64,000 bases of DNA from Conexibacter sp. CPCC 206217. GTDB taxonomy: Bacteria; Actinomycetota; Thermoleophilia; Solirubrobacterales; Solirubrobacteraceae. Each line of letters opens with the position of its first letter. The stretch's first letter is position 1. The translations under genes and the position numbers were made by a program. Below, piece by piece: positions 10,559 through 14,840 of this stretch. The stretch lies in the NCBI RefSeq assembly GCF_030646165.1, contig NZ_JAUTDO010000001.1, positions 372,001-436,000 on the forward strand. The letters are read 5' to 3'. The notes beneath the pieces are model-generated. The model saw only the letters and a program-made list of their open reading frames with translations. It ran no database searches and had not been told where the DNA came from.

Positions 10559-10893
10559 CGACGGGCGAGTCTACCGGTGCCAGATCTCACCAACTGCGAT
10601 CCGGTGCAGCGCAACTCGCGGCGTGCGAAAGGGTTTCAGCAGATGTCCGTGGCGTCGCGGGATCCCACCCGAAAGCGAGGGTGCCTTCCCCGGCGTCGTC
10701 GCGCCCGCGAACCCCCGCCACGACATGCCATGCCCACCGGCTCCCGACCACAACCGCCCCCCGTGGTCGGGAGTCGCTGGTCGCGCATGCCGGCCGCTGG
10801 AATACGCAACAAGCTCGGAGCAATCCGTTGCCGGTAGCGTTCCGCCGCCATGGGCCCCGGACACGACACTCGAATGCGCCGCGCGCAGACCGC
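10559..10893. other. Divergent intergenic region with an 11-bp stem hairpin
   Basis: 335 bases between the divergent genes at 10558 and 10894 with no credible reading frame. It contains a perfect 11-bp inverted repeat: CTCCCGACCAC at 10741-10751 and GTGGTCGGGAG at 10763-10773, separated by 11 C-rich bases. Because the flanking genes point away from each other it is not an ordinary terminator. It is more likely part of a leader RNA of the PHP gene or an operator-like element (inference). Confidence 0.55.
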
Positions 10894-11943
10894 ATGATCG
10901 ACCTCACCTGCGTCGTGCACGTGCACTCGCGGCACTCCGACGGCAGCGGAACGGTCGAGGAGATCGCCGCCGCGGCCGCCGCCGCGGCCGCCGACGTCGT
11001 GCTGCTGACCGATCACGACACGCTCGCCGCCCGCTACCACGGCGAGGAGCGCTGGCACGGCTCCGTGCTCGTCTGCGTCGGCGAGGAGGTCACCAAGCGC
11101 CCGGGTCACCACTACCTCGCGTTCGGGATCGACGAACCGATCGACCACAGCACCCGCACCCCGCAGGAGGTCGTCGACGCCGTCGCGCGGCAGGGCGGCC
11201 TCGGCTTCACCGCGCACCCCTTCTCGACCGGCGTCAGGCCGTTCCCGTTCATCCCCACGACCGCCTGGGACGACCCGTTCCCGCCCGGCGCGACCGGCGT
11301 CGAGTTGTGGTCGCTACTGACCGACACCGTCGAGCGCATCCGGCACCGCCACGACCCGCTGCGACTGCTGCTGTCGCCGCGCGCGTCGAAGCTGCTCGAC
11401 GCCCCGCGCCCCGAGGCGCTCGCCGCCTGGGACCGCGCGACCGCGACCCGCCGCGTCGTGGCGATCGGCGGGCTCGACGCGCACCAGATGGGCCTGCGGC
11501 TCGGCGGCCGCGTGCCGTTGCGGCTGATGAGCTACCGCCGTTCGTTCGAACTGCTGCGCACGCACGTGCTGCTGGAGCGCCCGCCCAGCGGCGACGCCGC
11601 CGCCGACCGCGCCGCCGTCTACGAGGCGCTGCGCGAGGGCCGCTGCTACCTCGCCCGCGACGTGATCGCCCCCGCCGGCGGCTTCCGTTTCTGGGCCGAC
11701 GGCCCGGAGCACGTCGAGATGGGCAGCGAGGCGCAGGCGGGCGGCTTCACGCTGCACGTGCGGCTGCCGCGCAAGGCGAGCGTGCGGCTGCTGCGCGACG
11801 GGGTCGAGGTGGCGCACACGGTCAGAGGCTCCAGCCTCGACGCGGCGTCGGGCGGGCCGGGCGTCTACCGCGTCGAGGCGACGCTGCCCGAGCACGGCCG
11901 CCAGCGCAGTTGGATCGTCTCGAACCCGATCTACCTGCGCTGA
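10894..11943 (+). CDS. PHP-domain phosphoesterase
   Basis: A 349-residue protein with a polymerase-and-histidinol-phosphatase (PHP) domain. Metal-binding motifs are seen in order: HVHSRHSDG at residues 9-17, LLTDHDT at about 45, GEEVT with a nearby HH (GHHYLAFGID) and FTAHPF around 105, and GGLDAHQ near 195. The last 80 residues form a beta domain (FTLHVRLPRKASVRLLRDGV) often seen at the end of PHP proteins linked to secreted or sugar-related functions. The substrate is unknown. I place the start at the ATG 10894-10896, just ahead of the first metal motif; the frame is open further upstream but its composition there is not protein-like. Confidence 0.85.
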   Translation: MIDLTCVVHVHSRHSDGSGTVEEIAAAAAAAAADVVLLTDHDTLAARYHGEERWHGSVLVCVGEEVTKRPGHHYLAFGIDEPIDHSTRTPQEVVDAVARQGGLGFTAHPFSTGVRPFPFIPTTAWDDPFPPGATGVELWSLLTDTVERIRHRHDPLRLLLSPRASKLLDAPRPEALAAWDRATATRRVVAIGGLDAHQMGLRLGGRVPLRLMSYRRSFELLRTHVLLERPPSGDAAADRAAVYEALREGRCYLARDVIAPAGGFRFWADGPEHVEMGSEAQAGGFTLHVRLPRKASVRLLRDGVEVAHTVRGSSLDAASGGPGVYRVEATLPEHGRQRSWIVSNPIYLR

Positions 11944-12007: not shown

Positions 12008-13228
12008 TCAGTTCCCCTTCGTCCCCGACACCGCTCTGCCCGGTCTGCCGTAGATCCACTGCGAGAGGATCTGGCGCACCGCGGGCGCGGCCGCCTCGGC
12101 ACCGAAGCCGCCGTCCTCGATCACGGCGGCGACGACGATCGGACGCTGCGGGTCCTCGACGTAGGCGACGAACCACGACTGGTCGGGTCGACCGTCCATC
12201 TGGACGGTGCCGGTCTTGCCGTAGACCTGTCTGCCGAAGCCTGCGAAGACGTCGTAGGCGGTGCCGTCTCTCATCGCCGTCGCTCCGAGCAGTCCGTCGC
12301 GGATCGCCTGCAGGCCGAGGATCTCGATCCGCCGCGCCGGTCTCGGCGTGATCCGGTCGGCGATCCGGCCCTTGTCGCCCAGCACCGCCAGGCCGACGTG
12401 CGGCCGCACGACCGTGCCGCCGTTGGCGATCGCCGCGTACGCCGTCGCGAGCTGCAGCGGCGAGGCGGCGAAGTCGCCCTGACCGATCGCCAGCGAGACG
12501 TTGTCGCCGACGGTCCAGTCGTGCTCGGGCAGCGCGATGTGGCAGTTGTCGAGGTGTCTCTCGCGGCGGCACCTCAGCTCCGCCTTCCACAGCTCCGGCC
12601 CGCGACGCGGATCCGGCACGACGCCCTGCTGCTCGTTGGGCAGGTCGATCCCGGTCGGCGCGCCGAAGCCGAACCTGCGCGCCCACGCCTGCAGCTCGCC
12701 GCCGCGCGGATGTCTGACCGGATCGGCGTTGAGACGCTCGCCGAGGTCGTAGAAGTAGGTGTCGACGGAGACCGCCAGCGCCCACACGAGCGAGACCGGA
12801 CCGAAGACGGCGTTGCCGGCGTTTCTGCGCACCTGCGCGCCGCTGCTCCACGCGCCGGTGTCGTTGTAGACGCGCTCGACGGTCGTCGCGCCGGTCGCGA
12901 GCCCGGCAGCGGCCGTGACGACCTTGAAGGTCGAGCCGATCGCGTAGGCGCCCTCGACGGCGCGGTCGAACAGCGGGCTGCCCGCGCGCTCGCCGTAGCG
13001 CTCGTCGTACGTTCTCTGGCTCATCGGGCGGGTGAAGACGTTCGGGTCGAACGACGGCGCGGAGCCGAGCGCGAGGATCTCGCCGTTGCGCGTGTCCATC
13101 GCGACGAACGCGCCCGCGTCGGCGGGGTTGCCGTGCGCCTGCGCGAGCCCGATCCCGTTCTGCAGCGCCCGCTCGCCGACCTGCTGCAGCGCCGCGTCGA
13201 TCGACAGCCGCAGGTCTCTGCCGGGCAC
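12008..13228 (-). CDS. mrdA: Penicillin-binding protein 2, transpeptidase fragment
   Basis: 406 residues that hold the complete transpeptidase domain of a class B penicillin-binding protein of the PBP2 type. The motifs are GSTFKVV with the nucleophile Ser and Lys (SxxK), SVDTYFYDLG (the SxD variant usual in PBP2), and YGKTGTVQ (KTG). The start given is a GTG at 13228, just ahead of PGRDLRLSIDAALQ, which in intact proteins follows directly on the dimerisation region. The open frame continues upstream to a piece (SDGAQRIEVDAQGR) normally found before that point, so this is the 3' part of a longer gene. Without the N-terminal membrane anchor it would not be placed at the cell surface. Confidence 0.85.
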   Translation of the reverse strand: MPGRDLRLSIDAALQQVGERALQNGIGLAQAHGNPADAGAFVAMDTRNGEILALGSAPSFDPNVFTRPMSQRTYDERYGERAGSPLFDRAVEGAYAIGSTFKVVTAAAGLATGATTVERVYNDTGAWSSGAQVRRNAGNAVFGPVSLVWALAVSVDTYFYDLGERLNADPVRHPRGGELQAWARRFGFGAPTGIDLPNEQQGVVPDPRRGPELWKAELRCRRERHLDNCHIALPEHDWTVGDNVSLAIGQGDFAASPLQLATAYAAIANGGTVVRPHVGLAVLGDKGRIADRITPRPARRIEILGLQAIRDGLLGATAMRDGTAYDVFAGFGRQVYGKTGTVQMDGRPDQSWFVAYVEDPQRPIVVAAVIEDGGFGAEAAAPAVRQILSQWIYGRPGRAVSGTKGN

Positions 13229-13301
13229 GGGCAGCAGGGGCGCGAGTTGTCTTCTGGCCGCCCGCCCCTGTGCGTCGACCTCGATCCGCTGGGCGCCGTC
13301 G

Positions 13302-13793
13302 CTAGACCGCGCGCGACGCTGCCGGCTGCACGACGACGTCCGCGTACGGCAGCGCGGCGACGTGCTGCTCGACGGTGCAGACGACCGGCATCAGTTGCTT
13401 GACGATCGTTCTGTCGCCGTCGGCGAAGTCGCACTCCTCGGGCGCCGTCGGCTCACCCAGCACGCGGCTGAGTCTGCGCAGGACCGCCTCACGCGCCGCC
13501 GCGTCCTCGGGCAGTTGCGGCGGTGAGACGACGATCGCGACCGCGCTCTCGTTGTCGACCAGGACCGTGTCGTTGCGATCCAGCAGCTTGCCGCGCGGCG
13601 CCGTCACGCTGACCGAGCGGACGCGGTTGCCGGACGCCTGCGCGAGGTACTGCTCGCCGGTGAGCACCTGCAGGAACCACAGGCGCAAGAAGATCACCGC
13701 GAAGATCGCGAGCGCGATCCCGCCGAGGATCGCGACGCGCACCGCGAGCTGCGGCGAGGATGGGGAACGGCGCTCCGCCGGCGGCTCGAACAT
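13302..13793 (-). CDS. mrdA: Penicillin-binding protein 2, N-terminal fragment
   Basis: 163 residues forming the beginning of a PBP2. It has a short cytoplasmic tail, one transmembrane anchor (about 17-43, VRVAILGGIALAIFAVIFLR), the LTGEQYLAQASGNRVRSVSV block, and the start of the pedestal with APRGKLLDRNDTVLVDN. It stops at a TAG (13302-13304) after DVVVQPAASRAV. In intact PBP2 that segment continues for some 70-80 residues before the part found in the next frame. The two halves are therefore parts of one gene joined by an apparent internal deletion that also shifted the frame. No rodA or mre gene lies next to it in the window. Confidence 0.85.
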   Translation of the reverse strand: MFEPPAERRSPSSPQLAVRVAILGGIALAIFAVIFLRLWFLQVLTGEQYLAQASGNRVRSVSVTAPRGKLLDRNDTVLVDNESAVAIVVSPPQLPEDAAAREAVLRRLSRVLGEPTAPEECDFADGDRTIVKQLMPVVCTVEQHVAALPYADVVVQPAASRAV

Positions 13794-13862
13794 GGTCGAG
13801 CCGCGACATTACTGCGAGCGGCTACGCGCCGCGTCGGATGGACGCGGCGCGGCTCTGCCGGC

Positions 13863-14840
13863 TCAGGCTTCGACCGCCTGATTGACCGGCGCCGGCTCGA
13901 CCACCGGCGGCGTGTCGCGCAGGTACCACTCGGCGTCGAGCGCGGCCTTGCAGCCGGAGCCCGCGGCGGTGATCGCCTGGCGGTAGGTGTGGTCGACGAG
14001 GTCGCCGGCGGCGAAGACGCCCGCGACGTTCGTGCGCGTCGAGAGGCCCTCGGTCTTGACGTAGCCGTTCTCGTCCAGCTCGACGAGGCCGTCGACCAGC
14101 TCCGACTGCGGTTCGTGGCCGATCGCGATGAAGGCGCCCGTGGCGGAGTGCTCGCGCACCTCGCCGCTGTCGGTGTGCTTGAGGATGACCTTCTCCATCA
14201 TCCCCTTCTCGCCCGCGGCGAACTCGTCCACGACGTAGGGCGTCAGCCACTCGATGTTCGGCTGCGCTCTGGCGCGGTCGAGCATGATCGCGGACGCGCG
14301 GAACTCGTCGCGGCGGTTGACGATCACGACTCTGCCGGCGAACTTCGCCAGGAAGATCGCCTCCTCCATCGCGGAGTCGCCGCCGCCGACGATGACGGTC
14401 TCGTGCTCCTTGAAGAAGGCCGCGTCGCAGGTCGCGCAATAGCTGACGCCGCGTCCGCTCAGCTCCAGCTCGCCGGTCGCGCCGAGCTTCTTGTGCTGGG
14501 CGCCCATCGCGAGCACGACGGCCTTCGTGCGGTACGCGTCGTCGCCGATCCAGACGGTGTGGATGCCGCCGTCGTTGAGCTCGACTCTGGTCGCGTCGTC
14601 GGTGATGAAGCGCGTGCCGAAGCGCTCGGCCTGGTCGCGGAACTCCTGCATCATCACGGGCCCCATGACGCCTTCTCTGTAGCCGGGGTAGTTCTCGACC
14701 TCGGTCGTCTGCTGCAGCAGGCCGCCCCAGGCGAAGCCCTCGATCACGAGCGGTCTCAGGTCAGCGCGCGCGGTGTACAGCGCCGCGGTGTAGCCGGCCG
14801 GTCCGCTGCCGACGATGATGACGTTCTCGACGTCTGACAT
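13863..14840 (-). CDS. trxB: Thioredoxin-disulfide reductase
   Basis: 325 residues with the full low-molecular-weight thioredoxin reductase architecture. The FAD-binding GSGPAGYTAALYTAR is at residues 11-25, the redox-active CATC at 135-138, and the NADPH-binding GGGDSAMEEA at 152-161. GVFAAGDLVDHTYRQAITAA is the C-terminal FAD motif. The enzyme passes electrons from NADPH through FAD to thioredoxin in the cytoplasm. The ATG at 14838-14840 gives the usual length; the open frame upstream is shadow of the neighbouring gene. No thioredoxin gene is adjacent. Confidence 0.97.
   Translation of the reverse strand: MSDVENVIIVGSGPAGYTAALYTARADLRPLVIEGFAWGGLLQQTTEVENYPGYREGVMGPVMMQEFRDQAERFGTRFITDDATRVELNDGGIHTVWIGDDAYRTKAVVLAMGAQHKKLGATGELELSGRGVSYCATCDAAFFKEHETVIVGGGDSAMEEAIFLAKFAGRVVIVNRRDEFRASAIMLDRARAQPNIEWLTPYVVDEFAAGEKGMMEKVILKHTDSGEVREHSATGAFIAIGHEPQSELVDGLVELDENGYVKTEGLSTRTNVAGVFAAGDLVDHTYRQAITAAGSGCKAALDAEWYLRDTPPVVEPAPVNQAVEA

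What the first reader, a model, noticed from the sequence alone, without database searches (positions are those of the whole stretch)
12008..13793. PBP2 gene split by an apparent in-gene deletion with frameshift
The N-terminal fragment ends at a TAG after QPAASRAV. Directly after it, in another frame, the sequence resumes at SDGAQRIEVDAQGR, which in intact PBP2 lies some 70-80 residues further on. So roughly 210-240 bp of the pedestal/dimerisation region are missing and the frame is broken. The catalytic domain (STFK, SVD, KTG) is intact. If real, the elongation PBP here is either dispensable, replaced by another copy, or expressed as two chains, with the transpeptidase lacking its anchor.
Basis: partly seen in the sequence, partly recalled or inferred. 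Interest (0 to 1): 0.7.

Follow-up and report, generated by a model that had tools for sequence, protein, structure and literature searches.

The report
Broken spare copy of PBP2 gene
A soil actinobacterium (Conexibacter) carries a second, decayed copy of a cell-wall gene (PBP2) that lost 221 bases and its reading frame, while the working copy sits intact in its normal operon elsewhere in the same genome, so this is an ordinary pseudogene.

Summary
In detail: window 12008-13793 (minus strand) holds a PBP2-type gene in two frames. Against the genome's other PBP2 and three genus orthologues, the alignment has one clean 221-bp gap. The gap removes 74 residues of the dimerisation/pedestal domain, shifts the frame and creates a TAG exactly at the junction. 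STFK, SVD and KTG motifs survive. The downstream piece has no start codon before GTG 13228, and so neither membrane anchor nor signal peptide.

The broken gene is not the cell's elongation PBP. An intact mreB-mreC-mreD-PBP2-rodA operon lies on another contig (C7:6963-12787), with a PBP2 about 64% identical. The broken gene is an extra copy, between the trxB 3' hairpin and a convergent PHP/CehA-type gene. In three congeners trxB and that gene are direct neighbours and no PBP2 lies there. All 80 PBP2 loci fetched from other genomes are in one frame. In the 64 kb, comparison with the closest complete genome shows no other gene confirmed as split.

Best explanation: an inactivated accessory paralogue (pseudogene). 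Assembly error is a minor rival (no reads available); a functional two-chain PBP is unlikely. Low interest.

The parts
13302..13793 (-). 5' fragment of PBP2 (mrdA-like) paralogue: TM anchor plus first third of PBP_dimer domain, 163 aa, stop TAG 13302-13304 created at the junction
   Evidence: PF03717 profile positions 2-61 of 180, E 7e-8; 63% identical to the C7 copy over 163 aa
13300..13305 (-). junction of the 221-bp deletion (GTCT|AGCGAC read on the minus strand)
   Evidence: DNA alignment with C7, G003, G004, G005; longest direct repeats at the equivalent sites in the four intact copies are only 6-7 bp
12008..13303 (-). 3' fragment: linker and intact transpeptidase domain with STFK, SVD, KTG; first start codon GTG 13228; no TM segment or signal peptide
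   Evidence: PF00905 E 6e-52; 64% identical to the C7 copy
13819..13860 (-). strong stem-loop after the trxB stop, a shared 3' hairpin; sits between trxB and the PBP2 paralogue
   Evidence: MFE -34.5 kcal/mol, z -3.9; matching hairpin between trxB and the PHP gene in G005
13863..14837 (-). trxB (thioredoxin-disulfide reductase), upstream neighbour
   Evidence: TIGR01292, 356.5 bits against cut-off 343.45
10888..11943 (+). PHP/CehA-McbA-type metallohydrolase, convergent downstream neighbour
   Evidence: NF038032, 100.8 bits against cut-off 80

Best explanation
The locus is an inactivated extra copy (pseudogene) of the elongation transpeptidase PBP2 in a Conexibacter genome. A full-length PBP2 gene came to lie between the trxB 3' hairpin and the convergent PHP gene, by duplication within the genus or transfer from a relative (inferred). 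It then lost 221 bp of the dimerisation-domain coding sequence in one frame-breaking deletion (shown by alignment). Translation from ATG 13793 stops at once at a TAG formed by the junction. The remaining catalytic frame has no early start and no membrane anchor, so no working enzyme is expected (inferred). Elongation is served by the intact mreBCD-PBP2-rodA operon on contig C7 (presence shown, function inferred).
For: Single clean 221-bp gap against four intact orthologues, not a multiple of 3. Intact mreBCD-PBP2-rodA on C7; its PBP2 scores 507 bits against the TIGR03423 cut-off of 455, the two window pieces 303 and 71. The window locus is absent at the trxB/PHP junction in G003, G004 and G005. 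The tree places the window copy inside the genus clade (100/100) but outside the starred C7+G005 pair, with an end branch of 0.42 against 0.12-0.17 for C7, G003 and G005. The window copy changes 3 of 63 family-invariant positions, the highest fraction of the 29 rows. All 80 PBP2 loci from other genomes are in one frame. No upstream start, TM or signal for the catalytic piece.
Against: Apart from the deletion the gene is open over about 1.8 kb with codon-like GC3 of 0.93 in both fragments, and all catalytic motifs remain, so decay is recent or some constraint remains. The faster evolution is modest: Tajima chi2 2.0-4.1 against C7, G005 and G003, and not significant against G004, whose branch is equally long. 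No close strain is held to show the deletion independently.
Confidence: 0.87

Rival explanations
1. Sequencing or assembly artefact: the organism has an intact second PBP2 here and the assembly dropped 221 bp.
For: The assembly is in 28 contigs with 6.56% estimated contamination; a sister copy about 75% identical in DNA exists; no reads are available; everything else in the gene is open.
Against: Collapse needs a repeat, but the equivalent sites in four intact copies share at most 6-7 bp; the gap is far larger than usual indel errors; across the window no other gene was confirmed as split against the closest complete genome; the missing segment was not found elsewhere in the assembly.
Confidence: 0.07
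2. A functional split or truncated PBP: two chains made from the two ORFs, or a +1 frameshift at GTC-TAG-C giving one PBP2 with a shortened pedestal.
For: Both fragments keep codon-like composition; active-site motifs are intact; 'TAG C' following a codon loosely resembles the E. coli prfB +1 site (own knowledge).
Against: The catalytic chain has no anchor or signal peptide and no start before GTG 13228; the deleted stretch includes the conserved HLFGTVGQ...VGKSGLE core of the dimer domain; no other locus among 80 shows the arrangement; the single genome gives no evidence that the split is conserved. The MreC-contacting, RodA-activating part of PBP2 is the pedestal (PMC6207328).
Confidence: 0.03
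3. The split gene is the cell's only elongation PBP2, so PBP2 is dispensable here.
For: None beyond the split itself.
Against: Intact mreB-mreC-mreD-PBP2-rodA operon on contig C7.
Confidence: 0.02

Closest known systems
PBP2/MrdA of the mreBCD-rodA operon (TIGR03423; PF03717 + PF00905)
   Same: Both pieces align end to end with it, about 63-64% identical to the genome's own intact copy; catalytic motifs retained
   Different: Not in the mre operon; 74 pedestal residues and the reading frame lost
Bacterial interrupted coding sequences / pseudogenes (as surveyed for the M. tuberculosis complex in PMC2277376; abstract only read)
   Same: Coding sequence interrupted by a frame-breaking lesion; here in a redundant copy while the operon copy stays intact
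   Different: Nothing notable
PBP2 copies outside the mre operon in Solirubrobacterales (e.g. L157 Solirubrobacter phytolaccae, L145)
   Same: PBP2-like copy with no mre or rodA neighbour in the fetched stretch
   Different: Those read in one frame

Membership tests
PBP2 / MrdA (TIGR03423) | Transpeptidase domain with SxxK, SxN/SxD, KTG motifs | tested here: met
   PF00905 E 6e-52; STFK, SVD, KTG present
PBP2 / MrdA (TIGR03423) | Complete PBP_dimer/pedestal domain fused to TM anchor in one frame | tested here: not met
   Only profile positions 2-61 of 180 remain, in a different frame
PBP2 / MrdA (TIGR03423) | Score above the family cut-off (455 bits) | tested here: not met
   302.7 and 71.4 bits for the two pieces; 507.5 for the C7 copy
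PBP2 / MrdA (TIGR03423) | Location in mreBCD-rodA operon | tested here: not met
   Neighbours are trxB and a PHP gene; the C7 copy meets it
Pseudogene of a redundant paralogue | Frame-disrupting lesion relative to intact homologues | tested here: met
   221-bp deletion and TAG
Pseudogene of a redundant paralogue | Functional copy present elsewhere in the genome | tested here: met
   Intact copy C7:9579-11594
Pseudogene of a redundant paralogue | No functional product made | not testable with these tools
   Needs RNA, protein or knockout data
Pseudogene of a redundant paralogue | Relaxed constraint | tested here: inconclusive
   3/63 invariant positions changed, slightly faster rate, but codon-like composition kept

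The most novel reading that the evidence does not exclude
The two ORFs, or a +1 frameshift product, make a working PBP2 variant with a minimal pedestal that crosslinks peptidoglycan independently of MreC control.
Probability: 0.02. Interest if true: 0.6.

Novelty: already known. Interest (0 to 1): 0.1.

Why it matters
It matters little. It shows that the apparent loss of an elongation PBP is only decay of a spare copy, and it records an accessory PBP2 that came to lie beside trxB in one Conexibacter lineage. It also warns annotators not to infer loss of the Rod system from this locus.

Tried and rejected
PBP2 absent or dispensable: rejected, since an intact operon is on C7. Assembly collapse through a repeat: no repeat longer than 7 bp at the equivalent sites in intact copies. 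General frameshift-rich assembly: multi-frame matches across the window against G003 were followed up at 29.6-31.7 kb, where the glycosyltransferase ORF is whole; the others (near 17-19 kb and 42.6-44.4 kb) look like antisense or stop-to-stop extension artefacts and were judged by inspection only. A hairpin-stimulated frameshift at the junction: folding of 13225-13330 is no better than shuffles, z +1.1. First single-protein scan of genome contigs found nothing; the alignment scan found 111 relatives, of which 80 were kept. Literature: no paper on a Conexibacter PBP2 was found. dN/dS is saturated and composition-biased at this divergence, so it was used only as a rough guide. Structure prediction was not run because it would not separate the rivals.

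Full report
Observation. On the minus strand, ATG 13793 opens a 163-aa frame ending QPAASRAV-TAG at 13302. From the junction a second frame reads SDGAQRIEVDAQGR... to the stop at 12008 and holds the STFK, SVD and KTG motifs. Pfam finds only positions 2-61 of 180 of PBP_dimer in the first piece and a full transpeptidase domain in the second.

What is missing. Aligned with the genome's second copy and with three congeneric orthologues, the window sequence has one 221-bp gap, GTCT|AGCGACGGC. Homology runs up to both edges. The gap corresponds to 74 residues of the intact protein (YSYLAER...YLRG), which includes the conserved HLFGTVGQ and VGKSGLE region. By the phmmer alignment this is roughly residues 144-217 of the solved MrdA chain 7kis_A (counted by hand). 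Because 221 is not a multiple of three, the frame shifts and the junction itself forms the TAG. PBP2's pedestal is the part contacted by MreC and implicated in activating RodA (PMC6207328).

Is it the cell's PBP2? No. The genome has eight transpeptidase-domain genes. One, on contig C7, is an intact 671-aa PBP2 in the order mreB-mreC-mreD-PBP2-rodA (ORFs; families). It is 63-64% identical to the window copy and 76-78% identical to the G003 and G005 orthologues. A tree puts the window copy in the genus clade with full support, but outside the starred C7+G005 pair and on a longer branch. It is therefore not a very recent duplicate of C7. It could be an older duplicate lost elsewhere or a transfer from an unsampled relative; the data do not decide.

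Where it sits. In G003, G004 and G005 the flanking genes are in the same order, but trxB and the convergent PHP gene are nearly adjacent, with no PBP2 match between them. In the window, about 1.9 kb lies between them and the only gene recognised there is the PBP2 paralogue. The hairpin after trxB has a close counterpart between the two genes in G005, so the paralogue lies beyond the shared 3' hairpin.

Is the break real? No reads are available. The deletion edges correspond to sites that share at most 6-7 bp in intact copies, too short to make an assembler collapse the region. Comparing the window with the closest complete genome confirmed no other split gene, though that screen was not exhaustive. 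The missing segment was not found elsewhere in the assembly. A real deletion is therefore much more likely than an error.

Could it still work? The catalytic frame has no ATG, GTG or TTG between the junction and GTG 13228, so any product would lack anchor and signal peptide and stay in the cytoplasm (inference). A frameshift fusion would lack the core of the pedestal. The window copy deviates at 3 of 63 invariant columns, the highest fraction of the 29 sequences, against 0-1 for the seven other genus sequences, but codon-like composition remains. This fits a gene that worked after duplication and broke recently. All 80 PBP2 loci fetched from public genomes are in a single frame, nearly all beside mre or rodA genes.

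Organism.

Verdict. A pseudogenised accessory PBP2 paralogue. The sequence observation is right; its biological implication is ordinary.

Noticed in passing
L157 (Solirubrobacter phytolaccae), L145; G025:C1:4258209 and 5112782: Further PBP2-like copies, in one frame: two with no mre or rodA neighbour in the fetched stretch, and one genome with two strong PBP2 matches. Accessory PBP2 paralogues seem to recur in Solirubrobacterales.
   Followed up: partly
window 13819-13860: GC-rich hairpin GCGCCGCGTC-N5-GACGCGGCGC just after trxB, with a near-identical hairpin between trxB and the PHP gene in G005 (absent from the corresponding short gap in G003): likely a shared terminator of convergent genes.
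   Followed up: partly
G000 (whole genome): Estimated contamination of 6.56% for the window's assembly, although the two PBP2 copies on its contigs both group with the genus.
   Followed up: no
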